Origin: Moringa oleifera
Lineage: Eukaryota; Streptophyta; Magnoliopsida; Brassicales; Moringaceae
Length of the DNA: 64,000 nucleotides
Assembly: GCA_021397835.1 (NCBI GenBank)
Contig: JAJFZO010000902.1
Span: forward strand, 1,150,001-1,214,000
Direction of reading: 5' to 3'
This document shows, in pieces, positions 15,791 to 52,788 of the stretch (within the stretch, counting starts at the first letter, position 1; each line of letters starts with the position of its first letter). The position numbers and the translations under genes were made by a program. Below the pieces are notes generated by a model. That model searched no databases, was not told the origin of the DNA, and worked only from the letters and a program-made list of their open reading frames with translations.

Positions 15791-15816
<26 letters not shown>

Positions 15817-18790: not shown

Positions 18791-18839
18791 AAAAAATGTT
18801 AGTGTATAATAACATAATAGAATATATAAACATGATTTC

Positions 18840-20700: not shown

Positions 20701-20701
20701 T

Positions 20702-23245: not shown

Positions 23246-23293
<48 letters not shown>

Positions 23294-23320
23294 GATTATA
23301 AGAATATATAATTTATAAGC

Positions 23321-23352
<32 letters not shown>

Positions 23353-23590
23353 GATATTACTTGTTTCTTGATTCATTTTAGTACTTAATAATTAATATTT
23401 ATATATTGTAATATGTATTAATTTTATGATGATTATAACATATAGTTATGATTCATATACATTTATAACTTGCATGTATATGTATTCAATTATAAGATTA
23501 TATATATATGCCTAATTCTAAGTTATAGATAAAATTGATCAAGTACAACTACAAGTTATATATATGCATACATATACACAAGTATGCTTA
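22280..23590 (+). repeat. Local duplication, segment X, copy 2
   Basis: Copy of 14500-15790 in direct orientation. It contains a long (TA)n tract at 23251-23291 and a second at 23321-23350, expanded relative to copy 1. Noncoding. Confidence 0.85.
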
Positions 23591-24310: not shown

Positions 24311-24354
24311 TTATTAATTTTTTAAAAAATGTCGACACAATAAAATATTAGAGA

Positions 24355-25040
24355 TGATTTGTTTAATTAGAGTAGGGACATTAATCTCGTTGATCGCCGA
24401 CCTTTAAACTTTCTCTTAGACTTAAAAGTATTAAAATCTTTCATTTGAGAAAACCTAGTGTCCTATTGCTTTCCTGCCTTGGTAACCACATCATCATTTT
24501 TTATTTGATCAAAATAAGAGATTTTGTTCTTTTGAACAAGTTTTTAACTTTTCATTTGAAAATGCAACGCTTGTACAAAAAGACCTCCTTATATATAAAA
24601 AGGGTTAGTATTGATGAAAAAATCTTTTCTCATAAACAGAAAACAGTACCAAAATTGAAAAGGACAATTATTAGATTATTAAGTAAAGTCAAAAGTTAAC
24701 AACTCTGCACAAAAACTCTAATTGTAACTCATATTTCTTTTCTTCATGCAGTACACATCTTTAAGCCTTTTCAATGTTTTCAACTGAATCTCATAAAGTG
24801 AACCATAAAAGGAAAGGTTGATTTTGAATTTGGTAAAGGGAATTTTAGTATTTATCTTTGGCTTCCACAAGTACATAACAAAATAGAGACACAGAGAGAA
24901 GTCACCCACCAAGATTCTTCTTACACCCTTCCAACTCATTTTGATTTCATAATAAATTCAGTATGTTATTAGAAATCCTACCACATGCAATGCAGTGGCT
25001 TCCAAATCATGTGGATAACATTGTCATAGGACATCAGTCC
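24355..25040 (+). repeat. Local duplication, segment Z, copy 2
   Basis: Copy of 18840-19500. The right end, just after GACATCAG, abuts the truncated first unit of the ACC exon array at about 25045, so this is a rearrangement breakpoint. It contains the second version of the short MRKPS frame, which is not conserved enough to call a gene. Confidence 0.8.
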
Positions 25041-25044
25041 ACTA

Positions 25045-26945
25045 ATCTTATAGGACAGGTACCCGTTTAAACTCATTTTATTATCATCAAAACTGCTATT
25101 GCTTGTGTTTTTCTATCTAAACTGGAATTGCTACTCATGAAAGCTGCTACTACTACTGTTATTCATCAAAACTGCTACTACCACCGCTAATCAAGCTAAA
25201 TTTCTACTGTAAGCCATCATAACTGCTACTCTCTCCAAACTGCTATTATTATACTCTTATTGCTTTTCTTTTAAACTGCCGATGTTACAACTACTCCATT
25301 TAGGCTGCTACACCTATACCGAAATTGCTAATTAATTCGTGCTCCTATTACTCTACTGCAACAGCTGCTCGATTTAAATTGCCAGTCTTACTACTACTCA
25401 TCAAAACAGCTACTCGCACTACTAATGCATCTAAACTGCTACTGCTATACTACTACTGCTACTTTCTCTAAATTGCTATTGCACTGCAACCGCTACAATG
25501 CTATACTGTTATCGGTGTTGTTATAGTGCTACTTTTACTATTATCGTGTTCACTATTCTTTTAAATAGATAGCAAGTTATTACCTAAAAAACATTAACGT
25601 ACTCAAATGAGATTAGTAGCTTCTACTTACCAATTTGAGAATCCTGGATTTCATAATTGCCTCCCTCTGGACTGCAAATAAAAAATTCAATCATTTAGTT
25701 AGAAAATGAACCATGTTATCAAAAACATAGTTTTGAAAAAAAGAAAAAAACAAAATAACTTATCTTTACACAGAAGTAAGCACACATATTTAGTTCAGCT
25801 CTCCTAAAAGTCAAAGAATTATGCAGCTCAACTCTAGTTCATAAAAATGTGCAATAAAATGCGTCAACTATGATTGCTCAAGAAAGCTAGTAATTTACCT
25901 GTAGTTTCCCATCAGTGGGTTTCAAATCATTATCCGGGTCTACTCCTGTCTAGTGAATAGCTAAAGAATAGCCTTTGGCCTCGTACTCTTTGCTTTTTTC
26001 AAAATTAAAAGGGGTTAGCGGTCGCTGAGGATTTTTATGCTAGAAAATAGCCTTATTTCTTATTAAATGTCAGCATAGATTATGAGATACAACATTATAT
26101 AACAACGGAGAACAATTTAACAAAATATACAATCGTACCAGTAATTTGCGAGGGAGAAACATCGACCTAAAATGCAACATGCGCAGCAAAAAGTTTTACA
26201 TTAACAATCCATTTTATAATTGAGTGCTCCACTTATATGCAATACTTGCTGACATTCATTAACATTAAACATCTTAACAAGATAACTGGCAAGCCATTTC
26301 AAATTCAAAATGACTTGTGCCAAAACCACAACAAAAACGAGGTCAAAACTTATCATCAACCTGATTGTTCACATCCTAAGTTAGAAATATCATCTACAAA
26401 GATATCGACATGAACGAATACACGCAACCAAAAATTATAAAATATACCTGAGCGAAGAGCCAGCAAAGTATACCTACGATACAAGATTGGGTATCAGAAA
26501 AGAATATTTATTGGTGTCCATGCTTTCAAGATACTCAACAGTTGCAGCTTAAAAATAATTAACCATTTAGCGAACCTTGTAGTTACTTCCTAAAGTTCCT
26601 TGATAGTTTTCAAAGGAGCCAATGTAATTTGACCCTCCTTAATAATCTGTACCATACACATTAAAAAGGAAAGATCTCATAAAAATATTCTCCAAAATGA
26701 TAAATGCTATTCTTCCCATTTTATGGTTGGGAAGGCAGGATATAACTTGAATTCAATAAAAAATAGCAAAATAAGAAAAATATTATACATAGTAACCAAA
26801 TCAAAATTCAGTGACAACAAAATGAATGAACGTTCTAATGCCTCTTCTCGATATTACAGTCCCTGCAATGAAAAGCTGCAACATTTTCATAATGATCACA
26901 AAGTAGTTAAACCACTACATTTCAACTCTAGTTAGAAAATGCGAT
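25045..26945 (-). pseudogene. ACC1 exon-array unit 1 (truncated at its distal end)
   Basis: Exon remnants read on the minus strand: VQLLCD-type and RDC block 26838-26935; IIKEGQITLAP/AATVEYLESMDTNKYSF 26470-26655; VEHP-type exon 26139-26245; KGYSLAIH to DLKPTDGKLQ 25897-26030; WAYFSVK-type 25764-25815; GGIHEF/DSQFG-type 25630-25676. These follow the order of biotin carboxylase in plant homomeric ACC, the cytosolic enzyme making malonyl-CoA from acetyl-CoA. The third-listed motif keeps DPDNDLKPTDGKLQ, close to the family's DPDDGFKPTSGKVQ, but an in-frame stop lies within the exon. The low-complexity block (25045-25565) is cut partway, where it joins segment Z. Confidence 0.85.
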
Positions 26946-29045
26946 ACATATCTAAACTTCTCCTCCATCAAAACTTCTACTGCTAGTCCTACTCAAACCA
27001 AACTTATACTGTTATACTACTGCACGGCTACTGCTACTCTATCCAGGCTACCACTGCTATATGTCAGTGCTACTCCTCTAAACTGCTGCTGTTAGTGCCA
27101 TTCCGTTTAATCTACTGCAGCTATACTGTAATTACTTCTCAATCCGAACTGCTATTGCTATACAGCTACAGCTACCCGTTTAAACCCATTTTATTACTCA
27201 TCAAAACTGCTATTGCTCGTACTTTTCTATCTAAACTAGAATTGCTACTCATGAAAGCTGGTACTACTACTGCTACTCATCAAAGCTGCTACTACCATTG
27301 CTAATCAAGCTAAACTGCTGCTGTAATCCATCATAACTTCTACTCTCTCCAAACTGCTACTGTATACTCTTATTGCTTTTCTTTTAAACTGCTAGTGTTA
27401 CAACTACTCCATTTAACCTGCTACACCTATATCGAAATTGCTAATCAATTCGTGCTCTTACTGCTATACAACAACAACTGCTCGATTTAAATTGCTAGTC
27501 TTACTGCTACTCATCAAAACTGCTACTTGCACTATTAGTGCATCTAAACTGCTACTACTATACTATTACTGTTGCTCTCTCTTAATTGCTATTGCACTGC
27601 AAACGCTACAATGTTATACTGCTATCGGTGTTGTTATAGTGCTACTTTTACTATTATCGTGTTCACTATTCTTTTTAAATAGAGAGAAGGTTATTACCTA
27701 AAAAATATTAACATACCCAAATGAGATTAGTAGCTTCTACTTACCAATTTGAGAATCCCAGATTTCACGATTGCCTCCCCTGGACTACAAGTAAGAAATT
27801 CAATTGTTTAGTTAGAAAATGAACCTTTCAATCAAACACATAGTTTTGAAAAAAAAAAGAAAAAACAAAATAACGTATGTTTACATAGAAGTAAGCACAC
27901 ATTTTTAGTTCAACTCTCCTAAAAGTCAAAGAATTATGCAGCTCAACTCTAGTTCATAAAAATGCGCAATAAAATGCATCAACCATGATTGGTCAAGAAA
28001 GCTAACAATTTACCTGTAGTTTCTCATCAATGAGTTTCAAATCATCATCCAGGTCTTTTCCAGTCTAGTGAACAGCTAAAGAATAACCTTTTTGCCTCGT
28101 GCTCTCTGTATTTTCAAAATTAAAAGGGATTAGCAGTAGCTAAGGATTTTCATCCCAAAAAATAACGTTATTTCTTATTAAATATAAGCATAGATTATGA
28201 GATACTGCATTAAATAACTACGGAGAACAATTTAACGAACTATACTATCGTACCAGTAATTTAAGAGAGAGGAACATCGACCCCGAATGCAGCTTGCACA
28301 GCAGAAAATTTTACATCAACAATCCATTCTGTAATAAGGTGCTATACCTGTATGCAATACTTGCTGATAGTCATTGACACTAAACATCCTAATAAGGTAG
28401 CTGGCAAGCCATTTCAAATACAAAATGACTTGTGCCAAAACCACAACAAAAACGAGGTCAAAACTTATCAACCTAATTGTCAGCATCCCAAGTTAGAAAT
28501 ATCATCTATAAAGATATCGACATGAATGAATAAACACAAATAAAAATTATGAAGTATACCTGAGGGAACAGCCAGCAAAGTATACCTGCGATACAAGATT
28601 AGGTACTAAAAAATACCATTTATCGGTGTTTATACTTTCAAGATACTCAACAGTTACAGCTCAGAAATAATTAACCATTTGGTGAACCTTTTAGTTGCTT
28701 GCTGAAGTTCCTTAATAGTTTTCAAAGGAGCCCATGTAATTTGACCCTCCATAATAATCTGTACTATACACATTAAAAAGTAAAGATCTAAAAAAAACAT
28801 TCTCCAAAAAGATAAATGCTATTCTTCCACTCTTATTGTTGGATATAATTTGAATTCAATAAAAAATAATAAAATAAGAAAAATATTGTACCTAATAACC
28901 AAATCTAAATTTAATGACAACAAAAAGAATGAACCTTCAGGTGCCTCATCTCGATATTACAATCCCTGCAATGAGAACCTTCAACATTTTCATAATGATC
29001 ACAAAGTAACTGAACCAATACATTTCAAGTCTAGTTAGAAAATAC
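26946..29045 (-). pseudogene. ACC1 exon-array unit 2
   Basis: Full-length unit of about 2.1 kb: low-complexity CTGCTACT block 26955-27665, GGIHEF-type exon near 27745, WAYFSVK-type exon near 27885, AESTRPKG-type exon 28013-28150, VEHP-type exon 28252-28350, EGQITLAP exon 28575-28763 and RDCNIERRHQK-type exon 28935-29035. Stops and frameshifts occur in several exons. Plus-strand open frames over the low-complexity block (27095-27304 and 27438-27701) are Leu/Tyr/Thr-rich by-products of the repeats, not genes. Confidence 0.85.
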
Positions 29046-29810
29046 GATACACATCTAAACTTCTCCTCCGTCAAAACTTCCGCTGCTAGTCCTACTGCAA
29101 CCAATACACATCTAAACTTCTCTTCCGTCAAAACTTCTGCTGCTAGTCCTACTCCAACCAAACTTCTACCGCTATACTACAGCACTACTACTACTACTCT
29201 ATCCAAGCTACCACTGCTATATGCCAGTGCTACTCCTCTAAACTGCTGCTGCTAGTGCCACTTCGTTTAAGCCACTATAGCTATACAACAATTACTTCTC
29301 AATCCGAACTGTTATTGTTATATAGCTACAGCTACCCGTTTAAACTCCTTCTATTACTCATCAAAACTGCTACGGCTTATGCTTTTCTACCTAAACTGGA
29401 ATTGCTACTCAAGAAAGCTCAAAAATAATTAACCATTTAGCAAACCTTTAAGTTGCTTGCCGAAGTTCCTTGATAGTTTTCAAAGGAGCCAATGTAATTT
29501 GACCCTCTTTAATAATCTGTACCACACACATTAAAAAGTAAAGATTTCATACAAAAGGATAAATGTTATTCTTCCCCATTTATTGTTAGGAAGGTAGGAT
29601 ATAACTTGAATTCAATAAAAAAATGGCAAAATGAGAAAAATATTATACATAATAACCAAATCTAAATTCAGTGACAACAAAAAGAATGAACCTTTTGGTG
29701 CCTCCTCCCGATATTACAATCTTTGTAATGAAAAGCTGCAACATTTTCATAATGATCACAAAGTAGCTGAACCACTACATTTCAACTTTAGTTAGAAAAT
29801 ATGATACATA
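29046..29810 (-). pseudogene. Partial ACC1 array unit between units 2 and 3
   Basis: An extra partial repeat that lengthens the local interval to 2.85 kb. Part of the low-complexity block (29046-29418) is joined abruptly to the end of the AATVEYL/EGQITLAP exon (29419-29525). The RDC exon follows (29697-29795). The four downstream exons are missing, so the breakpoint removed about 1.3 kb of a unit. A 60-bp direct repeat (29041-29100 against 29101-29160) lies at its left edge. Confidence 0.8.
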
Positions 29811-31900
29811 TTTGAACTTCTCCTCCATCAAAACCTCTGCTGCTAGCCCAACTCCAACCAACTTCTATCGCTATACTACTGCACTACTATTGCTGCACAA
29901 TCCAAGCTACCATGGCTATATGGCAGTGCTATTCCTCTAAACTGCTACTGCTAGTGCCATTTCGTTTAAGCTACTACAACTATACTGTAATTCCTTCTCA
30001 ATCCGAACTGCTATTGTTATACAGCTACAGCAACTCGTTTAAACTCCTTCTATTACTCATCAAAACTGCTACTGCTTGTACTTTTCTATCTAAACTTGAA
30101 TTGCTACTCATGAAAGCTTATACTACTACGGTTGCTCATCAAAACTGTTATTACCGCTGTTAATCAAGTTAAACTGGTACTGCTAATCCATCATAGTTAC
30201 TACTCTCTCCGAATTGCTACTGTTATACTCTTATTACTTTTCTTTGAAACTTCTGGTCTTACAACCACCCCATTTAAGCTGCTACACCAGTACCGAAATT
30301 GCAAATCAATTCGAGCTCCTACTGCTCTATTACAACGACTGCTAGATTTAAATTGCCAGTCTTACTGCTACTCATCAAAACTGCTACTCTCACTACTAAT
30401 GCATCTAAACTGCTACTGCTATACTACTATTGTTTCTCTCTCTGAATTACTATTACACTGTAGCTACTACAATGCTATACTGCTATTGGTATTGTTATAG
30501 TGCTACTTTTATTATTATCGTGTTCACTATTCCTTTTAAATAAACAGTATGTTATTACCTAAAAAATATTAGCGTACTCGAATGAGATTAGTAGCTTCTA
30601 CTTACCAAAATGAGAATCCCAGATTTCATGATTGCCTCCCTTAGACTGCAAGTAAGAAATTCAGTCATTTAGTTAGAAAATGAACCATGCTATCAAACGT
30701 ATAGTTTTGAAAAAAAATAACAAAATAACTTATCTTTACAGAGAAGTAAGCCCACATATTTGGTTCCACTCTTCTAAAAGTCAAAGAAATATGTACCTCA
30801 ACTCTAGTTCATAAAAATGGGCAACAAAATGCATCAACTATGATTGCTCTAAAAAGCTGACAATTTACCTGTAGTTTCCAATCAGTTGGTTTAAAATCAT
30901 CATCTGGGTCTTCTCCTATCTAGTGAAAAGCTAAAGAATAACCTTTTGGCCTCGTACCCTCTACTTTTTCCAAATTATAAGGGGTTAGCGGTAGCTGAGG
31001 ATTTTCATGCCAGAAATAGCCTTATTTCTTATCAAATATAGGCATAGATTTAAGATACTGCGTCAAATAACTACGGAGAACAATTTAATAAAATGTACTA
31101 TCGTAGTAGTAATTTGTGAGAGAGGAACACCGACCTCGAATGTAGCTTGCGCAGCATAAAGTTTTACATTAACAATCCACTTCGTAATTGGGTGCTTCAC
31201 CTGCATGCAATACTTACTGACATTCATTAACACTAACATCTTAATAAGGTAGCTGGCAAGCCATTTCAAATACAAAACGCCTTATGCCAAAAGCACAACA
31301 AAAACGAGGTTAAAACCTATCAACTTGATTATCCGCATCCTAAGTTAGAAATATCATCTACAAAGATATCGACATGAATGAATACATGCAAATAAAAATT
31401 ATGAAGTATACCTAAGGGAACAGCAAGCAAATTATACCTGCGACACAAGATTGGGTATTAAAAAATAGCATTTATTGGTGTCTATGCTTTCAAGATACTC
31501 AATAGTTGCAGCTCAAAAATAATTAACCATTTAGCGAACCTTTTAGTTGCTTGCTGAAGTTCGTTGATAGTTTTCAAAGAAGCCAATATAATTTGACCCT
31601 CCTTAAAAATCTGTACCATACACATTAAAAAGTAAAGATCTCATACAAAAGGATAAATGCTATTCTTCCCCTCTTATGGTTGGGAAGGTAGGATATAACT
31701 TGAATTCAATAAAAAAATAGTAAAATAAGAAAAATATTATACGTAATAACCAAATCTAAATTCAATGGCATCAAGAAAGAATGAACCTTCTGGTGCTTCC
31801 CCTCGATATTACAATCCCTGCAATTAAAAGATGCAACATTTTCATAATGATCACAAAGTAGCCAAACCACTACATTTCAACTCTAGTTTGAAAATTCGAT
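29811..31900 (-). pseudogene. ACC1 exon-array unit 3
   Basis: Complete exon set. The VEHP-type exon (31120-31205) reads AAQATFEVGVPLSQI, close to the family's AAQVAVGMGIPLWQI. The TPF/AESTRPKG exon is at 30868-31010, the EGQ exon at 31440-31620 and the RDC exon at 31785-31890. Splice-like CAG/GTAAAT junctions remain at the exon edges. Disabled by stops and frameshifts. Confidence 0.85.
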
Positions 31901-33745
31901 ACATATCTAAACTTTTCCACTGTCAAAACCTGTGTTACTAGTCCTATTCCAACCAAACTTCTACCGCTATACTACTGCACTGCCATTACTACTCTATCAA
32001 AGCTACCACTGCTATATGCTAGTGCTACTCATCTAAACTGCTGCTGCTAGTGCCTCTTCGTTTAAGCTACTATAGCTATACTACAATTACTTCTCAATCC
32101 AAACTGCTATTATTATATAGCTACAGCTGCCCGTTTAAACTCCTTCTATTACTCATCAAAACTGCTACTGCTTATGCTTTTCTATCTAAACTTGAATTGC
32201 TATTCATGAAAGCTTCTACTACTACTGCTACTCATCCAAACAGCTATTACCGTTGCAAATCAAGTTAAACTGCTACTGCTAATCCATCATAGCTACAATG
32301 CTATACTGCTATTGGTATTGTTATAGTTTTACTTTTACTATTATCGTGTTCACTATTCCTCTTAAATAAACAGTATGTTATTACCTAAAAAATATTAATG
32401 TACTCAAATGAGATTAGTAGCTTATACTTACCAAATTGAGAATTTCAGATTTCATTATTGCTTCCCTTGGACTGCAAGTAAGAAATTCAATCATTTAGTT
32501 TGGAAACGAACCATGCTGTCAAACATATAGTTTTGAAAAAAAACAAAATAAAAAAATAACTTATCTTTACAGAGAAGTAAGCCCACATATTTGGTTCAGC
32601 TCTCCTGAAAGTCAAAAAATTATGCAGCTCAACTCTAATTCATAAAAATGGGCAATAAAATACATCAACTGTGATTGCTCTAGAAAGGTGACAATTTACC
32701 TGTAGTTTCCCATCAGTGGGTTTCAAATCATCATCCGATCTTTTCTTGTCTAGTGAATAGTCAAAGAATAACCTTTTGGCCTCGTACTCTCTGCTTTTTC
32801 TAAATTAAAAGGGGTTAGCAGTTGCTGAGGATTTTTATGCTAGAAAATAGCCTTATTTCTTATTAAATGTAGGCATAGATTTAACATATTGCGTTAAATA
32901 ACTACGGAAAACAATTTCATGAAATATACTATCGTACTAGTAATTTATGAGAAAGGAACATCGGCCCTGAATGCAACATGTGCAGCATAAAGTTTTACAT
33001 CAACAATTCACTCCATAATTGGGTACTTCACCTGTACGCAATATTTGCTGACATTCATTAACACTAAACATCTTAATAAGGTAGCTGGCAAGCCATTTCA
33101 AATACAAAACCCCTTATGCCAAAACCACAACAAAAACGAGGACAAAACTTATCAACTTGATTTTTCGCATCCTAAGTGAGAAATATCATTTATAAAGATA
33201 TTGACAAGAATGAATACATGCAAATAAAATTTATGAAGTATACCTGAGGGAACAGCCAGCGAAGTATACCTACGATAAAAGATTGGGTATTAAAAATGAC
33301 ATTTATTAGTGTCAATGCTTTCAAGATACTCAACAGTTGCAGCTCAAAAGTAATTAACCATTTAGCGAACGTTTTAGTTGCTTGCTGAAGTTCCTTGATA
33401 GTTTTGAAAGGGGCCAATGTAATTTGACCCTCCTTAATAATCTGTACCACACACATTAAAAAGCAAAGATCTAATAAAAACATTCTCTGAAAGGATAAAT
33501 GCTATTCTTCACCTCTTATGGTTGGGAAGTATGATATAACTTGAATTCAATAAAAAAAATAGCAAAACAAGAAAAATATTATACGTAATAACCAAATCTA
33601 AATTCAGTGACAACAAAAAGAATGAACCTTCTGGTGCCTCTTCTCAATATTATCATCCCTGCAATGAAAAGCTGCAACATTTTCATAATGATCACAAAGT
33701 AGCTGAATCATTATATTTCAACTCTAGTTAGAAAATACGATATAT
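31901..33745 (-). pseudogene. ACC1 exon-array unit 4 (deletion in intron-like block)
   Basis: About 280 bp of the low-complexity block is missing at about 32292, shortening the unit to 1.84 kb. The exon at 32697-32840 encodes EKAESTRPKGYSL on the minus strand. Its core KAESTRPKG is the same as in typical plant ACC1, which makes this exon diagnostic. The exon at 33245-33450 contains EGQITLAPFKTIKELQQATK, matching the family's EGPITVAPLETVKKLEQAAR. It then has a TGA where the family has the Gly codon of VNYVGAATVEYL. Confidence 0.88.
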
Positions 33746-35860
33746 ATCTAAACTTCTCCTCCGTTAAAACCTCTGCTGCTAGTCCTATTCCAACCAAACT
33801 TCTACCGCTATACTACTGCACTGCCATTGCTACATTATCCAAGCTACAACTGCTATATGCTAGTGCCACTCCTCTAAACTGCTGCTGCTAGTGCCACTTC
33901 GTTTAAGCTACTACAGCTATACTGCAATTACTTCTCAATCCGAATTGCTATTGTTATACAGTTACAGCTACCTGTTTAAACTCCTTTTATTACTAATCCA
34001 AACTGCTGCTGCTTGTGCTTCTCTATCTAAACTTGAATTGCTACTCATGAAAGCTTAAACTACTACTGCTACTCATCCAAACTGTTATTACCGTTGCTAA
34101 TCAAGTTAACCTGCTACTTCTAATCCATCACAGCTACTACTCTCTCCGAATTGCTACGGTTATGCTTTTATTACTTTTTCTTTTAAACTTCTGGTGTTAC
34201 AACTACTTCATTTAAGCTTTTGCACCTACAGAAATTGCTAATCAATTCGAGATCCTACTGCTCTACTGCAACGGCTGCTCGATTTAAATTGCCAGTCTTA
34301 CTACTACTTATCAAAACTGCTACTCCCACTACTAATGCGTCTAAACTGCTACTGCTATACTACTACTGCTTCTCTCTCTTAACTACTATTACACTGCAAT
34401 TGCTACAATGCTATTATGCTATTGGTATTGTTATAGTGCTACTTTTACTATTATCCTGGTCACTAATTCTTTTAAATAAACAGTATGCTATTACCTAAAA
34501 AATATTAATGTACTCAAATGAGATTAGTAGATTCTACTTACAAAATTGAGAATTCCAGATTTCATGATTGCCTCCCCTAGACTGCAAGTAAGAAATTCAA
34601 TCATTTAGTTAGAAAATGAACCATGCTATCAAACGTATAGTTTTGGAAAAAAAAACAAAATAAAAAAATAACTTATCTTTACACAGAAGTAAGCCCACAT
34701 ATTTGGTTCGGCTCTCTTGAAAGTCAAAGAATTATGCAGCCCAACTCTAGTTCATGAAAATGGGCAGTAAAATACATCAACTATCATTGCTCAAGAAAGG
34801 TGACAATTTACCTGTAGTTTCCCATCAATCGGTTTCAAATCATCATCTGATCTTCTTCTGTCTAGTGAACAGCTAAAGAATAACCTTTTGGCCTCGTACT
34901 CTCTGTTTTTTCCAAATTAAAAGGGGTTAGCGGTAGCTGAGGATTTTCATGCTAGAAAATAGCCTCATTTCTTGTTAAATATAGGCATAGATTTGACATA
35001 CGGCGTTAAATAACTATTGAGACCAATTTAGTAAAATATACTATCGTACCAGTAATTTGCGAGAGAGGAACATCGGCCCCGAATGCAACATGTGCAGCAT
35101 CAAGTTTTACATCAATAATCCACTCCGTAATTGGGTGCTTCACTTGTTTGCAATACTTGCTGACATTCATTAACACTAAACATCTTAATAAGGTAGCTGG
35201 CAAGCCATTTCAAATAAAAAATGCCTTATGCCAAAACCAAAACAAAAACGAGGTCAAAACTTATCAACCTGATTTTTCGCATCCCAAGTCAGAAATATCA
35301 TCTATAAAGATATTGAAATGAATGAATACATGTAAATAAAAATTATGAAGTAAACCTGAGGGAACAGCCAGCAAAGTATGCCTGCGATACAAGATTTGGT
35401 ATTAAAAAATGGCATTTATTAGTCTTCGTGCTTTCAATATACTCAACAGTTGCAGCTCAAAAGTAATTAACCATTTAGCGAACATTTTAGTTGCTTGCTG
35501 AAGTTCCTTGATAGTTTTCAAAGGGACCAATGTAATTTGACCCTCTGTAATAATTTGTTCCACACACATCAAAAAGCAAAGATCTAATAAAAACATTCTC
35601 TGAAAGGATAAATGCTATTCTTCGCCTCTTATGGTTGGGAAGATAGGATATAACTTGAATTCAATAAAAAAAAAGCAAAACAAGAAAAATATTATATGTA
35701 ATAACCAAATCAAAATTCAGTGACAACAAAAGGAATGAACCTTCTGTTGCCTCCTCTCAATACTACAATCCCTGCAATGAAAAGCTGCAACATTTTCATA
35801 ATGATCACAAAATAGCTGAATCACTATATTTCAACTCCAGTTAGAAAATACGATACATAT
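33746..35860 (-). pseudogene. ACC1 exon-array unit 5
   Basis: Standard 2.11-kb unit. The VEHP-type exon (35050-35145) reads VKHPITEWIIDVKLDAAHVA, against VEHPVTEWIAEINLPAAQVA in the family. The AESTRPKG exon is near 34810-34945, and the EGQITLVP exon ends near 35560. The RDC exon is near 35755-35850. Frameshifts and stops are present; the unit keeps splice-like exon borders. Confidence 0.85.
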
Positions 35861-37970
35861 CTAAACTTCTCCTCCATCTAAACCTCTGTTGCTAGTCCTA
35901 CTATAACCAAACTTCTACCGCTATACTACTGCACTGCCATTGCTACTTTATCGAAGCTATTGCTGCTATATGCTAGTGTTACTCCTCTAAACTGTTGCTG
36001 CCAGTGCCACTTCGTTTAAGCTACTACAGCTATACTGCAATTACTTCTCAATCCGAACTACTATTGTTGTACAGCTACTCATTTAAACTCCTTTTATTAC
36101 TAATCAAAACTGCTACTGCTTGTGCCTTTCTATTGAAACTTGAATTGCTACTAATGAAAGCTTTTACTACTACTGCTACTCATCCAAACAACTATTGCCG
36201 TTGCTAATCAAGTTAAACTGCTACTGCTAATCCATCACAGCTACTACTCTCTCCGAATTGCTACTGTTATGCTCTTATTACTTTTTCTTTTAAACTTCTA
36301 GTGTTACAACTACTCCATTTAAGCTTTTTCACCTGCATCGAAATTGCTAATCAATTCGAGCTCTTACTGCTCTACTGCAACGGCTGCTCGATTTAAATTG
36401 CCAGTCTTACTACTACTCATCAAAACTGCTACTCCCACTACTAATGCATCCAAACTGCTATTGCTATACTACTACTGCTCTTTTCTCTGAATTACTATTA
36501 CACTACAACTGCTACAATGCTATACTGTTATTGGTATTGTTATAGTGCTACTTTTACTATTATCATGTTCACTATTTCTTTTAAATAAATAGTATGTTAT
36601 TACCTAAAAAATAGTAATGTACTCAAATGAGATTAGTAGCTTCTACTTACCAAATTGAGAATCCAGAATTTCATGATTGCCTCCCCTGGATTGCAAGTAA
36701 GAAATTCAATCATTTAGTTAGAAAATGAACCATGCTATCAAACGTATAGTTTTGAAAAAAAAAACAAAAAAACAAAATAACTTATCTTTACACAGAAGTA
36801 AGCCCACATATTTGGTTCAGCTCTCCTGAAAGTCAAAGAATTATGCAGCCCAACTCTAGTTCATCAAAATGGGAAAAAAAATGCATCAACTATCATTGCT
36901 CAAGAAAGGTGACAATTTACCTGTAGTTTCCCAACAGTTGGTTTCAAATCATCATCCGGTCTTCTCACATCTAGTGAATAGCTAAAGAATAACCTTTTGG
37001 CCTCGTATTCTCTGCTTTTTTCAGATTAAAAAGGGTTAGCGGTAGCTGAGGATTGTCATGCCAAAAAATAGACTTATTTCTTATTAAATGTAGGCATAGA
37101 TTTGACATATTGCATTAAATAACTACGAAGAACAATTTAATGAAACATATTATCGTACTAGTAATTTGCGAGAGAGGAACATCGGCCCCGAATGCAACAT
37201 GTGCAGCATAAAGTTTTACATCAACAATCCACTCCGTAATTTGGTGCTTCACCTATATGCAATACTTGCTGACATTCATTAACACTAAACATCTTAATAA
37301 GGTAGCTAGCAAGCCATTTCAAATACAAAACGCCTTATACCAAAACCAAACAAAAACGAGGTCAAAACTTATCAACCTGATTTTTCGCATCCCAAGTCAA
37401 AAATATCATCTATAAAGATATTGACATGAATGAATACATGCAAATAAAAATTATGAAGTATACCTGAGGGAACAGCCAGCAAAGTATACCTACGATAAAA
37501 GATTAGGTATTAAAAATGACATTTATTGGTGTCCATGCTTTCAAGATACTCAATAGTTGCAGCTCAAAAGTAATTAACCATTTAGTGAACCTTTTAGTTG
37601 CTTGCTGAAGTTCCTTGATAGTTTTCATAGGGGCCAATGTAATTTGAACCTCCTTAATAATCTGTACCACACACATTAAAAAGTAAAGATCTAATAAAAA
37701 TATTCTCTAAAAGGATAAATGCTATTCTTTGCCTCTTATGGTTGGGAAGGTAGGATATAACTTGAATTCAATGAAAAAAAATAGCAAAACAAGAAACATA
37801 TTATATGTAATAACTAAATCAAAATTCAGTGACAGCAAAAAGAATGAACCTTCTGGTGCCTCGTCTCAATATTACAATCCTAGCAATGAAAAGCTGCGAC
37901 ATTTTCATAATGATCACAAAATAGCTGAATCACTATATTTCAACTCTAGTTAGAAAATACGATACATATC
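35861..37970 (-). pseudogene. ACC1 exon-array unit 6
   Basis: Standard unit, nearly identical to unit 7 over the low-complexity block and the first two downstream exons (36296-36880 against 38409-38990). This points to a recent exchange between neighbours. It carries all six exon remnants: WAYFSVK-type near 36790, AESTRPKG-type near 36920-37060, VEHP-type near 37165-37255, EGQ exon near 37470-37670, RDC exon near 37850-37950. Confidence 0.85.
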
Positions 37971-40075
37971 TAAACTTCTCCTCCGACAAAACCTCTACTG
38001 CTACTCCTACTATAACCAAACTTCTACTGCTATACTACTGCACTGCCATTGCTACTCTATCTAAGCTACTGCTGCTATATGCTAGTGTTACTCCTCTAAA
38101 CTGCTGCTGCTAGTGCCACTTCGTTTAAGCTACTATAACTATACTGCAATTATTTCTCAATACGAACTACTATTGTTGTACGGCTACAGCTACCCATTTA
38201 AACTCCTTTTATTACTAATCAAAACTGCTACTGCTTGTGCCTTTCTATCTAAACTTGAATTGCTACTAATGAAAGCTTTTACTACTACTGCTACTCATCC
38301 AAACAACTATTGCCGTTGCTAATCAAGTTAAACTGCTACTGCTAATCCATCACAGCTACTACTCTCTCCGAATTGCTACTGTTATGCTCTTATTACTTTT
38401 TCTTTTAAACTTCTAGTGTTACAACTACTCCATTTAAGCTTTTTCACCTGCATCGAAATTGCTAATCAATTCGAGCTCTTACTGCTCTACTGCAACGGCT
38501 GCTCGATTTAAATTGCCAGTCTTACTACTACTCATCAAAACTGCTACTCCCACTACTAATGCATCCAAACTGCTATTGCTATACTACTACTGCTCTTTTC
38601 TCTGAATTACTATTACACTACAACTGCTACAATGCTATACTGTTATTGGTATTGTTATAGTGCTACTTTTACTGTTATCATGTTCACTATTTCTTTTAAA
38701 TAAATAGTATGTTATTACCTAAAAAATAGTAATGTACTCAAATGAGATTAGTAGCTTCTACTTACCAAATTGAGAATCCAGAATTTCATGATTGCCTCCC
38801 CTGGATTGCTAGTAAGAAATTCAATCATTTAGTTAGAAAATGAACCATGCTATCAAACGTATAGTTTAAAAAAAAAATAAAAAAACAAAATAACTTATCT
38901 TTACACAGAAGTAAGCCCACATGTTTGGTTCAGCTCTCCTGAAAGTCAAAGAGTTATGCAGCCCAACTCTAGTTCATAAAAATGGGCAATAAAGTGCATC
39001 AACTATCATTGCTCAAGAAAGGTGACAATTTACCTGTAGTTTCCCATCCGTTGGTTTCAAATCATCATCTGGTCTTCTCCTGTCAAGTGAATAGCTAAAG
39101 AATAACCTTTTGCCTCGTACTCTCTGCTTTTTCCAAATTAAAAAGGGTTAGCGGTAGCTGAGGATTTTCATGCCAGAAAATAGCCTTATTTCTTATTAAA
39201 TGTAGGCATAGATTTGACATACTGCGTTAAATAACTACGAAGAATAATTTAATGAAATATAATATCGTACCAGTAATTTGCGAAAGAGGAACATCGGCCC
39301 TGAATGCAACATGTGCAGCATAAAGTTTTACATCAACAATGCACTCCGTAATTGGGTGCTTCACCTGTATGCAATACTTGCTGACATTCATTAACACTAA
39401 ACATCTTAATAAGGTAGCTGACAAGCCATTTTAAACACAAAACGCCTTATACCAAAACCACAACAAAAACGAGGTCAAAACTTATCAACCTGATTTTTCG
39501 CATCCCAAGTTAAAAATATCATCTATGAAGATATTGACATGAATGAATACATGCAAATAAAATTTATGAAGTATACCTGCGGGAACAGCCAGCAAAGTAT
39601 ACCTGCAATACAAGATTGGGTATTAAAAAATGACATTTATTAGTGTCCATGCTTTTAAGATACTCAACAGTTACAGCTCAAAAGTAATTAACCATTTAGC
39701 GAACCTTTTAGTTGCTTGCTAAAGTTCCTTGATAGTTTTCAAAGGGACCAATGTAATTTGACCCTCCTTAACAATCTGTACCACACACATTAAAAAGTAA
39801 AGATCTAATAAAAACATCCTCTGAAAGGAGAAATGCTATTCTTCCCCTCTTATGGTTGAGAAGGTAGGATATCACTTGAATTCAATAAAAAAAATAGCAA
39901 AACAAGAAAAATATTATACGTAATAACCAAATCTAAATTCAGTGACAACAAAAAGAATGAACCTTCTGGTGCCTCCTCTCAATATTACAATCCCTGCAAT
40001 GAAAAGCTACAACATTTTCATAATGATCACAAAGTAGCTAAATCACTGTATTTCAACTCTAGTTAGAAATTACGA
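37971..40075 (-). pseudogene. ACC1 exon-array unit 7
   Basis: Standard unit, most similar to unit 6. A one-base deletion in the AESTRPKG exon near 39110 shifts its frame. The VEHP-type exon (39275-39370), EGQ exon (39590-39785) and RDC exon (39965-40065) are present. Confidence 0.85.
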
Positions 40076-41995
40076 TACATATCTAAACTTCTTCTCCGTC
40101 AAAACCTCTGCTGCTAGTCCTACTCAAACCAAACTTCTACCGCTATACTACTGCACTGCCATTGCTACTCTATCCAAGCTACCACTGCTATATGCTAGTG
40201 CTACTTCTCTAAACTGCTGCTGTTAGTGCCACTTCATTTAAGCTACTACAGCCATACTGCAATTACTTCTCAATCCGAACTGCTATTGTTATACAGTTAC
40301 AGCTACCCGTTTAAACTCCTTTTATTACTCATCAAAACTGCTACTACTTGTGCTTTTCTATCTAAACTTGAATTGCTACTCATGAAAGCTTCTACTACTA
40401 CTGCTACTCATCCAAACTGCTATTATTGTTGCTAATCAAGTTAAACTACTACTGCTAATCCATCACAGCTACTACTCTCTCCGAATTGCTACTATTGTAC
40501 TTTTATTACTTTTCTTTTAAACTTCTGGTGTTATAACTACTCCATTTAAGCTTTTACACCTACACCGAAATTGCTAATCAATTCGAGCTCCTACTACTCT
40601 ACTGCAACGGCTGCTCGATTTAAATTGCCAATCTTACTACTACTCATCAAAACTGCTACTCCCACTACTAATGCATCTAAACTGCGATTGCTATACTACT
40701 ACTGCTCCTCTATCTGAATTACTATTACACTGCAATTGCTACAATGCTATACTGCTATTGGTATTGTTATAGTGCTATTTTTACTATTATCGTGTTCACT
40801 ATTCTTTTTAAATAAACAGTATGTTATTACTTAAAAAATATTAATGTACTCAAATGGGATTAGTAGCTTTTACTTACCAAATTGAGAATCCCAGATTTCA
40901 TGATTTCCTCCCCTCAACTACAAGTAAGAAATTCAATCATTTAGTTAAAAAATGAACCATGCTATCAAACATATAGTTTTGAAAAAAACCAAATAACAAA
41001 ATAACTTATCTTTACACAGAAGTAAGCCCACATATTTGGTTCAGCTCTCCTGAAAGTCAAAGAATTATGCAACCCAACTCTAGTTGATAAAAATGGGCAA
41101 TAAAATACATCAACTATCATTACTCAAGAAAGGTGACAATTTACTTGTAGTTTCCCATCAGTGGGTTTCAAATCATCATTCGGTCTCCTCCTGCCTAGTG
41201 AATAGCTAAAAAATAACCTTTTGGCCTCGTACTATCTGCTTTTTCCAAATTAAAAGGGGTTAGTAGTAGCTGAGGATTTTCATACCAGAAAATAGCCTTA
41301 TTTCTTATTAAATATGGGCATTGAATTGACATACTGCGTTAAATAACTACGAACAACAATTTAATGAAATATACAATCGTACCAGTAATTTGCGAGAGAT
41401 GAACATCGGCCCCGAATGCAACATGTGCAGCATAAAGTTTTACATCAACAATCCACTCTGTAATTGGGTGCTTCACCTGTATGCAATACTTGCTTACATT
41501 CATTAACACTAAACATCTTAATAAGGTAGCTGGCAAGCCATTTCAAATACAAAACGCCTTATTCCAAAACCACAACAAAAAAGGAAGTCAAAACTTATGA
41601 ACCTGATTTTTCGCATCCCAAGTCAGAAATATCATCTATGAAGATATTGACATGAATGAATACATGCAAATAAAAATTATGAAGTATACTTGCAGGAACA
41701 GCCAGCAAAGTATACCTACGATACAAGATTGGGTATTAAAAAATGGTATTTATTAGTGTCCATGCTTTCAAGATACTCAACAGTTGCAGCTCAAAAGTAA
41801 TTAACCATTTAGTGAACCTTTTAGTTGCTTGCTGAAGTTCCTTGATAGTTTTCAAAGAGACCAATGTAATTTGACCCTCCTTAACAATCTGGTGCCTCCT
41901 CTCAATATTACAATCCCTGCAATGAAAAGCTGCAACATTTTCATAATGATCATAAAGTAGCTAAATCACTATATTTCAACTATAGTTAGAAATTA
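40076..41995 (-). pseudogene. ACC1 exon-array unit 8 (deletion between two exons)
   Basis: All six exon remnants are present, but about 190 bp of intron and exon edge are lost at about 41890. There the EGQITLAP exon runs directly into the RDC exon sequence. The AESTRPKG exon near 41226 has Asp for Glu (KADSTRPK). Unit length is about 1.9 kb. Confidence 0.85.
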
Positions 41996-44095
41996 CGATA
42001 CATATCTAAACTTCTCCTCCGTCAAAACCTCTGCTGCTAGTTCTACTCAAACCAAACTTCTACCGCTATACTATTGCACTGCCATTGCTACTCTATCTAA
42101 GCTACCACTGCTATATGCTAGTGCTACTCCTCTAAACTGCTGCTACTAGTGCCACTTCGTTTAAGCTACTACAGCAATACTGCAATTACTTCTCAATCCG
42201 AACTGCTATTGTTATACAGCTACAGCTACCCGTTTAAACTCCTTTTATTACTCATCAAAACTGCTACTGCTTGTGCTTTTCTATCTAAACTTGAATTGCT
42301 ACTCATGAAAGCTTCTACCATTACTGCTACTCATCCAAACTACTATTACTGTTGCTAATCAAGTTAAACTGCTACTGCTAATCCATCACAGCTACTACTC
42401 TCTCCGAATTGCTACTGTTATACTTTTATTACTTTTCTTTTAAACTTCTGGTGTTACAACTACTCCATTTAAGCTTTTACACCTACACCGAAATTGCTAA
42501 TCAATTCGAGCTTAGCTTTACTGCAACGGCTGCTCAATTTTAATTGCCAGTCTTACTGCTACTCATCAAAACTGCTACTCCCACTACTAATGCATCTAAA
42601 CTGCTACAGCTATACTACTACTCCTCCTCACTCTGAATTACTATTACACTGCAACTGCTACAATGCTGTACTACTATTGGTAATATTATAGTGCTACTTT
42701 TACTATTATTGTGTTCATTATTCCTTTTAAATAAACAGTATGTTATTACCTAAAAAATATTAATGTACTCAAATGAGATTAGTAGCTTCTACTTACCAAA
42801 TTGAGAATCCCAGATTTCATGATTGCCTCCCCTCGACTGCAAGTAAGAAATTCAATCATTTAGTTAGAAAATGAACCATGCTATCAAACATATAGTTTTG
42901 AAAAAAAACAAAAAAAAAAAACAAAATTACTTATCTTTACACAAAAGTAAGCCCACATATTTGGTTCAGCTCTCTTGAAAGTCAAAGAATTATGCAGCCC
43001 AACTCTAGTTCATAAAAATGGGCAATAAAGTGCATCAACTATCATTGCTCAAGAAAGGTGACAATTTACCTGTAGTTTCCCATCAGTTGGTTTCAAATCA
43101 TCATCCGGTCTTCTCCTGTCTAGTGAATAGCTAAAGAATAACCTTTTGGCCTCGTACTCTCTACTTTTTCTAAATTAAAAGGGGTTAGCGGTAGCTGAGG
43201 ATTTTCATGCCAGAAAATTGCCTTATTTCTTATTGAATATAGGCATAGAGATACTGTGTTAAATAACTATGGAGAGCAATTTAACGAACTATACTGTCGT
43301 ACAAAGAATTTGCGAGAGAGGAACATCGACCCCGGATGCAACTTACGCAGCAGAACATTTTACGTCAACAATCCATTTCGTAATTGGGTGCTCCACCTGT
43401 ATGCAATACTTGCTGACATTCATTAACATTAAACATCTTCATAAGGTAGTTGGCAAGCCATTTCAAATACAAAACGACTTGTGCCAAAACCACAACAAAA
43501 CGAGGTCAAGACTTGTCAACCTAATTATCCGTATCCTAAGTTAGAAATATGATCTACAAAGATATCGACATGAATGAATACACGCAAATAAAAATTATGA
43601 ACTATTCTTGAGAGAATAGCCAGTAAAGTATACCTGCGATACAAGATTGGATACTGAAAAATAGTATTTATTGGTATCCATGCTTTTAAGATACTCAACA
43701 GTTGCATCTTAACCATTTAGCGAACCTTTCAGTTGTTTGTTGAAGTTCCTTGATAGTTTTCAAAGGAGTCAATGTAATTTGACCCTCTTTAATAATCTGT
43801 ACCATACACATTAAAAAGTAAAGATCTCATAAAAATATTCTCCAAAAGGATAAATGCTATTCTTCCCCTCTTATGGTTGGAAAGATAGGATATAATTTGA
43901 ATTCAATAAAAAAATAGCAAAATAAGAAAAACATTATACATAATAACCAAATCTAAATGTAATGACAATAAAAAGAATGAACCTTATGGTATCTCCTCTG
44001 AATATTACAATCCCTACAACAAAAAGCTGTAACATATTTATGATGATCACAAAGTAACTGAACCACTAAATTTCAATTTCAATTAGAAAATATGA
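41996..44095 (-). pseudogene. ACC1 exon-array unit 9
   Basis: One of the better preserved units. The exon at 43632-43710 reads ATVEYLKSMDTNKYYFSVSN, against ATVEYLYSMDTGEYYFLELN in the family. The VEHP exon (43302-43400) starts VEHPIT. Catalysis in biotin carboxylases needs the Glu-x-Asn-x-Arg stretch (ELNPR); here it reads SVSNLV, so Glu and Arg are lost. Other exons: GGIHEF-type 42797-42840, WAYFSVK-type 42935-42985, AESTRPKG-type 43070-43205, RDC-type 43990-44090. Confidence 0.87.
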
Positions 44096-45260
44096 TATAA
44101 ATCTAAACTTATCCTCCATTAAAATGTCTACTCCTAGTGCCACACCAACCAAACTTCTACTGCTACATTACTGTACTAGTACTGTTACTTTATCCAGACT
44201 ACCACTACTATATACCAGTGCTACTTTTCTAAACTGTTGCTGCTAGTGCCACTACGTTTAAGTTTCTACAGCTATACTGTAACTACTTGTCAATCCCAAC
44301 TACTACTGTTATACTACTACAGCTACCCGTTTAAACTCCTACTACTACTCATCAAAACTGCTACTGCTTGTGCTTTTCTATCTAAACCGCAATTACTACT
44401 CATGAAAGCAGCTACTACTACTGCTACTCATCAAAATTGCTACTACCACTACTAATCAAGCTAAAGTGCTACTGGTAATCCATCTTAACTATTCTTCTAT
44501 CCAAACTGTTAGTGTTATATTGCTACTGCTTCTCCTTTAAACTGCTACTGTTACAACTACTTCATTTAAGCTGCTATAATTATACCAAAATTGATACTCA
44601 AAATTTTAACACACTCAAATAAAATTAATAACTTCTACTTACCAAATTGAGAATCTCAGAATTCATGAATGCCTCCTCTAAACTGCAAGTAAGAAATTTA
44701 ATCACTTAGGTAGAAAATGGACCATGCTATCAATATATAGTTTTGAAAAGAAAAAAAATAAAATAAATTATCTTTACAAAAGGGCAAGCCCACACATTTG
44801 GATTGCTTTTGAAATTCAACTCTTTTAAAAGTCATAGAATTATGCAGCTCAACTCTAGTTCGTAAAAATGAGGAATAAAATGCGTCAACGGTGACTGCTC
44901 AAGAAACCTAACAATTTACCTGTACTTTCCCACTGGTAGGTTTAAAACCATCATGTGGATCTTCATTTGTCACATGAACAACTACACAATGACCTTTCGA
45001 CCTAGAGCTATTTCTCTTGTCAAAATCAAAAGGGGTTAGTAGTAGTTAATGTTATTTCTGATTAAATATAAGCATATACTACATTAAATGACTAAGGAAA
45101 AAAGTTTAATGAACTTCACTATTGTACCCAAAATTTGCCAAAGAGGAACACCCATCCTGATTGCAACTTGAGCGGCTGGAAGGTTTACTTCGGCAATCCA
45201 CTCTGCAACTAGGTGCTCCATCTATATCTAGTACATAATGATATTCATTAACATTAAACG
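44096..45260 (-). pseudogene. ACC1 exon-array unit 10, least decayed in sequence
   Basis: Four exon remnants in order on the minus strand. 45128-45221 reads MEHLVAEWIAEVNLPAAQVA then IRMGVPLWQI. 44920-45048 reads LTPFDFDK, SKGHCVVVHVTNEDPHDGFK, PTSGKVQ. 44773-44826 reads ELNFKSNPNVWACPFVK. 44641-44684 reads RGGIHEF, a stop, DSQFG. These match plant ACC1 (NLPAAQVAVGMGIPLWQ, GHCVAVRVTSEDPDDGFKPTSGKVQ, ELSFKSKPNVWAYFSVK, GGIHEFSDSQFG) better than any other unit. The exon with FYGMEHGGGYDAW is not found. The EGQITLAP and RDC exons are also absent; a 14-3-3 remnant lies beyond. The enzyme cannot be made from this fragment. Confidence 0.9.
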
Positions 45261-45483
45261 TCTCAATAAGATAACAAGCGTACAGTACCTTATATAGCTC
45301 ATCTAGGTGGTCCTGTAGAAAGCATAGCACACATACATCACACCAGACCTAAGTCATTGGATTACCATCAAAAACTAAAATGAAGTTTAGTATAGCCTTC
45401 TTTTACAAGTTCAGCTCTATGTGTGTGAAAGAGAGTGAGGGTGAAAGAGACAGAGAGAGAAAGAGAGATTCTGCACTGACTTG

Positions 45484-45596
45484 TGCATCTGAAGTCCCGA
45501 GAGTGAGGTTATCCCTTAAGAGTTGCATGATAAGAGAGCTATCCTTTTTATTCTTCTCCAAAGCATCAAGCTCAGCAATGGCTTCGTTAAAATGCC
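45484..45596 (-). pseudogene. 14-3-3 protein exon remnant
   Basis: Minus-strand translation reads [20 protein letters not shown] followed by [17 protein letters not shown]. This is the near-C-terminal helix region of plant 14-3-3 proteins ([36 protein letters not shown]). 14-3-3 dimers bind phosphoserine motifs of client proteins. The near-invariant Trp is Gly here, and one base is inserted at the exon start. The sequence ends in AAGTCAGT, which could be a decayed donor. A possible earlier trace (QACLLAR, near 45800) is too short to call. It lies in the same orientation just upstream of ACC unit 10, so two unrelated genes are juxtaposed. Confidence 0.8.
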
Positions 45597-45599
45597 TTA

Positions 45600-47200
45600 A
45601 ATAAAAGTACAATGAGGGTAATTTAGGTAATCTCTAATAGTTAGCAAAGAAACAATCTTCAATTTTTGATTTGACATCAGTAAACAATAAGAGATTAAAA
45701 ATAAGATGATTTACATGGCTGAATCAATATTGCAAAAAATGGAACGACAACATTCAACATAAGATAGTTTCTACGAAGCATATGAACATCCTGGCAAGCA
45801 AACAAGCCTGATAAAATTAGATAAGCACAAACTGTAGTGCTTGCAGTTCCACTACCTTGCTTGAAAGGCTTTGCTCTCTCAAAAGGCTATCTTTTAATAT
45901 GCATTTAAATATTACAAAGACTTCAACTAAAATACGTTGTGGATATGTTCCCTCGCATGAGTATTCCTCAGTGTAAATTCTATTAATGAATCTACATTCA
46001 TGTTTCTCTAGTCTCCACTATTGTTTTGTGACTTAAGTACACGTGCATGCACATGGAGAACTGGCTAAATGGGCTACATGACACTTTGATAAAATTTTTG
46101 ATTTTTGTAACCTCCAAATGGATATGATATTTAGTACTAGCACTAATGCTGTAAAATCCATTACAATACTTAATCATAAAAAGCAAAAAGTAACAAGTAA
46201 AAAAGCATAAAAAGGTCACATGAAAACTAAATTGACCAGAACAAAAAAAAAAAATCCAACAAAATCAAGAAAACACATGCAAGAAAAAAACAATAGGCAA
46301 GAAACTTAAAGAAAATCCAAGACAATCCTATCATCATATATATGACTTTTTTCTCCAACCATCCAAGTTTTCAATTGATTTATTGCCTGGTAAAGATATT
46401 ATCTTTATTCTTGTACAATCTCTTTCTCAACAAGGAACTTGGTGTAAGAGATATAGTTAACATTGAGATTCTAAGCAAAGAGGTGACAACCACATAAAAG
46501 GATTCATAACTAGTTAGTCAATCAAGAAAAATTATTGCACAATTAAGTTTTAGTGCCATAGTTACTAATTCTTTCTTGAAGACACTGGATGTCAAGAGTA
46601 ACTCTGGCCATATGACTTGGGATCCATGATATGAACATACAATGCCATGGAAGAAAACAAGAAACACCATTTTAGAAGTTAAAGAGACTATAGGGACTCC
46701 ACATACCACAGGTCATATTGTAAACTGCATGGTTGATGAGCAGAAATCATAATTTGGTCCAGGTGAAATTTTGAGAAACATAATTCGGAAGAGGAAGAAA
46801 ATGAGGGTGAAGCTCTCTCGAAAAAGCAGGTCACTGCTAGGTGTAGAACGATAAATATTAAAATTCAAAGTCTGGCTAAATAATTGAAACCAATACCTCC
46901 AACTATGAATAACGTTCCTGTGATCCAAAGGTTAGTCGAATATCCATAAAATCAAAATAGTAAAGAGTCTTACAATAAAAAGTACAGGTGTGTAACCCAA
47001 GTACTGGAAAGCAGCACCACCAGCACCCTGCAAAATTGAACCTAGTGTTGGCAACATTTCAAATATGCCATGCGATTAACATAACAAGAAACCCAAAATT
47101 TACAGCACATTTAGCCTTAAGAAGCAGAAAAGAAAATAAAAAAAAAAGAATTCTCACTTGCTGTAGTGTGACAATGATATCGATTTTTTTTCCCTCTAGG
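45600..47200. other. Noncoding DNA with unassigned exon-like pieces
   Basis: Two minus-strand stretches look like membrane-protein exon pieces. 46988-47040 reads GAGGAAFQYLGYTPVLFIV and ends at a GTAAGA. About 46875-46925 reads GTLFIVGGIGFNYLARL after a CACAG. I do not recognise the protein. Near 46240-46310 the wording (ATCCAACAAAATCAAGAAAA) resembles one segment of the A-rich repeat family. Other open frames here have no recognisable domain. Confidence 0.35.
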
Positions 47201-47202
47201 TC

Positions 47203-48102: not shown

Positions 48103-48109
48103 TATCTTC

Positions 48110-48290: not shown

Positions 48291-48299
48291 GTTTTTTTC

Positions 48300-52717: not shown

Positions 52718-52788
<71 letters not shown>

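What the first reader, a model, noticed from the sequence alone, without database searches (positions are those of the whole stretch)
25045..45260. Ten-fold tandem array of acetyl-CoA carboxylase exon clusters
Six consecutive ACC1 exons (biotin-carboxylase C-terminal part), with their introns, form a ~2.1-kb unit repeated ten times head to tail. Motifs such as AESTRPKG, AATVEYL, VEHPIT, WAYFSVK and DSQFG recur in gene order in each full unit. Amplified multi-exon slices of an essential, single- or low-copy metabolic gene behaving like a satellite are unusual. I do not know of a described case for ACC1.
Basis: partly seen in the sequence, partly recalled or inferred. Interest (0 to 1): 0.9.

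Follow-up and report, generated by a model that had tools for sequence, protein, structure and literature searches.

The report
Gene slice turned into satellite DNA
In this flowering-plant genome a six-exon slice from the middle of an essential fat-synthesis gene (acetyl-CoA carboxylase) was copied once, lost its coding ability, spread to many places, and in one lineage was amplified into a satellite-like block of several hundred copies.

Summary
Window 25055-45275 holds 9.6 unit-equivalents of a 2.1-kb head-to-tail repeat on the minus strand. Each full unit carries six decayed exons, with introns, of plant homomeric ACC (residues ~269-483) plus a GTAGTAGCAG-type minisatellite. The window's 279.5-Mb assembly holds ~360 such units (two patterns, controls zero). 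On C125 they form arrays of about 10-18 units separated by a conserved 29-41-kb spacer: a macrosatellite, with its marker copy found at 24 places (haplotypes may be mixed). The intact gene lies on another contig (C3). Its 861 bp just upstream of the slice match the genome once; the slice has 637 first-look candidates. Satellite units and most dispersed fragments examined share one 5' junction with the minisatellite: a single founder. Codon positions and introns vary equally in 60 units, so no coding constraint. Likely mechanism: one DNA-level duplication of a minisatellite-flanked gene slice, dispersal by an unidentified vector, then repeated tandem expansion by unequal exchange. My seven literature searches found no ACC-derived satellite. 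Chromosomal position, transcription, small RNAs and species are unresolved.

The parts
25055..45275 (-). ACC-slice tandem array: 8 near-full and 5 partial pieces of a 2.1-kb unit (9.6 unit-equivalents)
25055..25494 (-). partial unit U01 (array edge)
25495..27607 (-). unit U02
27605..29419 (-). unit U03, cut at the junction near 29416
29416..30466 (-). partial unit U04
30467..32294 (-). unit U05
32292..34404 (-). unit U06
34402..36513 (-). unit U07
36511..38628 (-). unit U08
38626..40740 (-). unit U09, reference unit: minisatellite part 40084-40740, ACC-slice part 38730-40083, short tail 38626-38729
40738..41889 (-). partial unit U10
41890..42659 (-). partial unit U11
42657..44601 (-). unit U12, first full unit of the array in gene sense
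44602..45275 (-). U13: diverged, truncated ACC copy at the gene-sense start of the array; two of its exons match ACC1 at 76-77%
   Evidence: same copy at the start of 4 of the 4 arrays on C125 whose start is in the fetched stretch
45290..46460 (-). fragment with a C-terminal 14-3-3 exon (ORF 45403-45633) directly upstream of U13
   Evidence: Pfam PF00244 E 1.4e-7, 31.8 bits against a cut-off of 33.2; ORF; genome copies
47627..47842 (+). ankyrin-repeat gene fragment in the spacer
   Evidence: Pfam PF00023 3.5e-6, above cut-off; ORF
55468..55689 (+). second, more decayed copy of the ankyrin fragment
   Evidence: DNA match 47203-47960 with 55052-55801 at 83.5%; ORF
45276..64000 (.). first part of the spacer that separates this array from the next one (the next array's edge is at window-relative 74709, outside the window)
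1..25054 (.). last part of the spacer between the preceding array and this one; its 1-14340 matches 50209-64000 at 93-97% in the long pieces
5500..8067 (+). 165-bp minisatellite inside the spacer (second copy 55816-58224)
   Evidence: listed genome matches lie only on 12 contigs, all of which also carry the 14-3-3/U13 marker

Best explanation
A non-coding satellite that arose from a protein-coding gene. (1) Shown: an internal stretch of the ACC gene, starting 25 bp before the exon for residue 269, was copied at the DNA level with its introns and joined to a GTAGTAGCAG-type minisatellite. In the satellite lineage the stretch ends 63 bp into the long intron after residue 483 (~1.6 kb, six exons); some dispersed copies run ~375 bp further, so the first slice was probably longer. 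(2) Shown for the copies examined: dispersed fragments and satellite units share the 5' junction, so they go back to one founder. (3) Shown: the units evolve without coding constraint. (4) Inferred: minisatellite on both sides of the slice gives repeated homology, so unequal exchange or replication slippage builds tandem arrays; shorter versions of the slice did so on another contig too. (5) Shown: one lineage, beside a 14-3-3 gene fragment, was amplified together with a 29-41-kb spacer into a macrosatellite, ~360 ACC units (~0.8 Mb) in the assembly. (6) Inferred: core units are homogenised by exchange or conversion while array edges drift. (7) Not determined: what moved the founder between chromosomal places. 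The arrays most likely have no ACC function and are silent repeats.
For: 5' junction: BLAST homology to the gene starts at base 862 of the gene stretch in 7 of 8 aligned copies (C12, C517, C37, three on C25, U12; exception C563), and the sequence before it is minisatellite; U09 starts at the same base. Control: the gene's 861 bp just upstream have 1 candidate and 1 match, the gene itself, against 637 candidates (40 scored, 64 matches) for the slice. 3' junction near base 2468 shared by C563 and C25 and, less clearly, U12. Copy number 363 and 357, reversed-pattern controls 0. Marker copies: U13 probe 23 full-length at 91% or more plus 1 partial (40 of 151 candidates scored); 14-3-3 flank 23 full-length at 92% or more, 1 in two pieces, 1 more partial (40 of 99 scored). 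Long spacer matches on C125 are mostly 94-97% identical. Diversity in 60 units: codon positions 0.121, 0.104, 0.112, introns 0.105; one stop context in 7 units. Tree: units at the same array position in different macro-units pair. The order 14-3-3, truncated ACC, full ACC recurs on C25; 14-3-3 then ACC on C563.
Against: The 3' end is not uniform: 11 dispersed copies carry gene sequence beyond base 2468, all ending at 2829-2844. On C563 the slice begins at base 1019, not 862, which needs a secondary deletion. The unit consensus differs from the gene less at second codon positions (0.141) than at first, third or intron positions (0.228, 0.250, 0.221); constraint on the gene side may explain it, but this was not tested. 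The tree is rooted on the gene itself and no support values were read. The minisatellite-driven step is not demonstrated. Counts are floors and may include both haplotypes.
Confidence: 0.82

Rival explanations
1. A transposon (Helitron or Pack-MULE type) captured pieces of ACC, 14-3-3 and an ankyrin gene and carried the slice round the genome; the satellite is an amplified transposon interior. This competes only with the open dispersal step.
For: Fragments of unrelated genes lie side by side; the 14-3-3 plus ACC composite recurs at C563 and C25 in the same order; many copies share an end. Helentrons carrying satellite-like central repeats are known in oyster (PMC7492417, abstract and outline seen).
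Against: No terminal-inverted-repeat-like pair in 2 of the 3 dispersed loci tested (L042, L043), and in L041 only inside its AT-rich block; stretches were only 4-8 kb. Transposase or RepHel genes, target-site duplications and Helitron ends were not tested.
Confidence: 0.4
2. The block acts as chromatin: the centromere or other specialised heterochromatin of one chromosome.
For: Units run from ~973 kb to the end of C125 (1,229,876 bp), occupy the first ~0.48 Mb of C100, and fill small contigs, as one large poorly assembled block would.
Against: Chromosomal position is unknown and there are no CENH3 data; dispersed copies also lie inside large contigs.
Confidence: 0.2
3. The arrays make small RNAs that act on the intact ACC gene.
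For: Units are 72-77% identical to the gene over the slice; units in both orientations occur on C159 and C205.
Against: No RNA data were available; divergence is high; the window array has no inverted self-match of 400 bp or more.
Confidence: 0.08
4. Assembly artefact: the repeat is falsely expanded or joined.
For: Many copies lie on short contigs, and some contig pairs give the same scores, as haplotype duplicates would.
Against: Window units differ from each other by 5-20% and spacers mostly by 3-6%, with position-specific variants; false copying would give identical copies. No reads were available to check.
Confidence: 0.04

Closest known systems
Retrotransposon-derived plant satellites: CRM1TR of maize, Sobo (4.7-kb monomer, ~360 kb) and centromeric repeats of potato (PMC3648361: search listing and find passages seen)
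   Same: Kilobase monomers derived from a known longer sequence, local arrays, homogenisation inside arrays
   Different: The parent there is a retrotransposon (or, in other cases cited there, rDNA spacer); here it is a multi-exon slice of a metabolic gene
Helentron elements with satellite-like central repeats in oyster (Cg_HINE; PMC7492417: abstract and outline seen)
   Same: Dispersed elements that hold tandem repeats, some related to a classical satellite
   Different: No gene slice is mentioned in the part seen; Helentron termini were not tested here
Transposons with captured gene fragments: Pack-MULEs and plant Helitrons (recalled)
   Same: Decayed gene fragments with introns, several genes side by side
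   Different: Terminal structures not found or not tested; here the fragment itself became a high-copy tandem repeat
Partial gene duplicates in the Drosophila simulans complex (PMC7919458: search listing only)
   Same: The listing shows the phrase 'partial gene duplicates' and satellites in one paper
   Different: Not read, so no comparison is claimed

Membership tests
Satellite DNA | Head-to-tail tandem repetition of one unit | tested here: met
   2.1-kb period; four arrays of 9.6-18.3 unit-equivalents plus one cut by the contig end
Satellite DNA | High copy number | tested here: met
   363 and 357 matches, controls 0; modest for a satellite, ~0.3% of the assembly
Satellite DNA | Concerted evolution | tested here: met
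   core units U06-U09 91.5-93.7% alike; edge units U02, U03, U12 about 86-88% against them; tree
Satellite DNA | Heterochromatic location | not testable with these tools
   no epigenomic or cytogenetic data
Macrosatellite or higher-order tandem repeat | Long composite unit repeated in tandem | tested here: met
   U13 anchors 68.7, 72.1 and 50.7 kb apart on C125; long spacer matches mostly 94-97% alike
ACC pseudogene | Homology to ACC without an open coding frame | tested here: met
   stops and frameshifts; flat diversity
Functional ACC gene | Intact exons under constraint | tested here: not met
Processed (retro) pseudogene | Introns missing | tested here: not met
   introns present in the copies examined: window units, C563, C12, C517, C37, C25
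Pack-MULE | Long terminal inverted repeats with 9-bp target-site duplications | tested here: inconclusive
   3 dispersed loci searched for inverted pairs: none in L042 and L043, AT-rich block only in L041; short stretches; duplications not tested
Helitron | 5' TC and 3' CTRR ends with hairpin, insertion in AT | not tested
   element ends not delimited
Centromeric satellite | CENH3 association | not testable with these tools
   no ChIP data

The most novel reading that the evidence does not exclude
A minisatellite-bracketed slice of an essential gene acts as a self-amplifying cassette: where it lands the flanking minisatellite drives new tandem arrays, and in one lineage it has become the main repeat of a chromosome's large heterochromatic or centromeric block.
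Probability: 0.2. Interest if true: 0.8.

Novelty: new variant of a known kind. Interest (0 to 1): 0.62.

Why it matters
[quoted passage not shown] Here the parent is a named protein-coding gene still intact in the same genome, with a shared breakpoint, intermediate dispersed copies, at least one other small array and one large macrosatellite preserved. The steps from gene slice to satellite can be read from sequence and compared with a known ancestor.

Tried and rejected
Rejected: a long-terminal-repeat explanation for the ~50-kb flank repeat; the fetched neighbourhood shows repeated macro-units. Rejected: a larger ACC gene around the array; no other ACC exon in the window apart from one hit at E 4.4. 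Rejected: the 165-bp repeat as a genome-wide centromeric satellite; listed matches lie on 12 contigs only (40 of 53 candidates scored, further matches unlisted). Rejected: coding function. Led nowhere: protein search with the decayed unit translation, 18 hits, no source named as a plant; species naming, since 474 residues of the intact ACC are 95-97% identical to many eudicots; telomere pattern, whose listing is filled by an array on C14 and one place on C11; literature. Rows dropped before counts: BLAST pieces under 300 bp or 200 bits; unit slices under 1200 bp (C125) or 1350 bp (other loci), where L001 and L012 were left out as duplicates of C125.
Full report
Observation. Window 25055-45275 is a head-to-tail array with a ~2.11-kb period. 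Thirteen pieces can be defined, eight of them near-complete, together 9.6 unit-equivalents. Pairwise identity among units is 80-95%. The gene-like strand is minus. Plant ACC1 (typed from recall, checked at 100% over residues 100-600 against entry P0002) matches residues 252-488 in 46 places of this stretch, all minus, with no match for reversed or shuffled controls. A PDB search of one unit's exons, which included a short recalled lead-in, gives yeast ACC at 6.6e-21. The units are broken: stops and frameshifts, some shared, such as one stop context found in seven units.

Anatomy of a unit. In gene sense a unit is a ~0.65-kb GTAGTAGCAG-type minisatellite followed by the six-exon ACC stretch with its introns. 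The copy at 44602-45275 (U13) differs: it is truncated and 76-78% identical to the others, and two of its exons match ACC1 at 76-77%. It joins a fragment with a 14-3-3 C-terminal exon (PF00244, 1.4e-7, just below cut-off). The spacers also hold ankyrin-gene fragments, a copia gag remnant, A-rich blocks and a 165-bp minisatellite.

Genome scale. The window is C125:1150001-1214000 of a 279.5-Mb assembly in 669 contigs. Two 26-base unit patterns with up to two mismatches occur 363 and 357 times, reversed-pattern controls 0. In C125:980001-1229876 (fetched, joined to the window) there are five arrays: four of 9.6 to 18.3 unit-equivalents and one of 2.4 cut by the contig end. The four whose gene-sense start is in view all begin with the U13-type copy. 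The spacers between arrays measure 29.4, 30.5, 33.5 and 40.6 kb by the array limits, and long spacer matches are mostly 94-97% identical. Genome-wide the U13 probe has 23 full-length matches at 91% or more and one partial (40 of 151 candidates scored); the 14-3-3 flank has 23 full-length at 92% or more, one in two pieces and one more partial (40 of 99 scored). So the array is one member of a macrosatellite. Counts are floors and may mix haplotypes.

Origin. The intact gene lies on C3 near 6.66 Mb; single-exon alignments to ACC1 are 85-100% identical. Homology to the gene begins at base 862 of the fetched gene stretch in seven of eight aligned copies (C12, C517, C37, three on C25, U12), each preceded by minisatellite; C563 begins at base 1019. 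In one search the query starts at base 862, so matches cannot start earlier; the control is, where the preceding 861 bp have one match, the gene. The slice has 637 first-look candidates, 40 scored, 64 matches, of which 44 (the gene included) begin at query bases 1-15 and the rest at inner positions. Near base 2468 C563 and C25 share a 3' junction, U12 less clearly. Eleven dispersed copies carry intron beyond that base, all ending at 2829-2844, so the first slice was probably longer and the satellite lineage a trimmed version. A shorter version forms another small array on C25 near 6.525-6.531 Mb, with slice bases 1 to ~618.

Evolution. Among 60 units diversity is 0.121, 0.104 and 0.112 at the three codon positions and 0.105 in introns: no coding constraint among units. 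Against the gene the unit consensus differs by 0.228, 0.141 and 0.250 at codon positions and 0.221 in introns; the low second-position value is not fully explained. A FastTree tree, rooted on the gene and read without support values, places C517/C37, C12 and C563 outside, then U13, the C25 copies and the satellite units. Units at the same array position of different macro-units often group together, so whole arrays were duplicated, while core units are more alike. The arrangement 14-3-3, truncated ACC, full ACC recurs on C25 near 6.83 Mb, and 14-3-3 then ACC on C563.

Mechanism. Shown: one founder for the copies examined, DNA-level copying, decay without coding constraint, tandem expansion at more than one place, macrosatellite. 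Inferred: minisatellite homology as the driver. Open: the vector of dispersal. A transposon is plausible, but the inverted-repeat search covered three short stretches and Helitron ends were not tested.

Literature. Searches list no paper that I recognised as an ACC-derived satellite; I saw titles and abstract starts only, apart from PMC3648361 (find passages) and PMC7492417 (abstract and outline). The library is open-access only, so absence is weak evidence.

Verdict. It meets the testable defining features of a satellite; the unusual part is its parentage.

Noticed in passing
5500-8067 and 55816-58224: 165-bp minisatellite, 15-16 matched monomer copies per block at low mutual identity; listed genome matches only on contigs that carry the macrosatellite.
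   Followed up: partly
1-3500, 8000-10000, 50000-53500, 58500-59500: Very A-rich blocks of about 11-17% GC inside the spacer; an AT-rich block with similar sequence follows ACC on C563, perhaps only compositional.
   Followed up: partly
14536-25052: Further internal repeats (14536-15770 with 22324-23589 at 89%; 18194-19517 with 23658-25052 at 76%), the last ending next to the array edge.
   Followed up: no
48770-49791: 517-bp tandem duplication (93%) with gene-like text, family not identified.
   Followed up: no
20702-21160: Copia-type gag remnant on the minus strand, Pfam PF14223 below its cut-off.
   Followed up: no
L046 (C25:6529501-6534000) and C25:6524544-6530573: Separate small tandem array from a shorter version of the same ACC slice.
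   Followed up: partly
C159 and C205: ACC units in both orientations on one contig, so the locus holds inversions or a turned join.
   Followed up: no
C14:20820-22056: TTTAGGG array near one end of the contig's coordinates.
   Followed up: no
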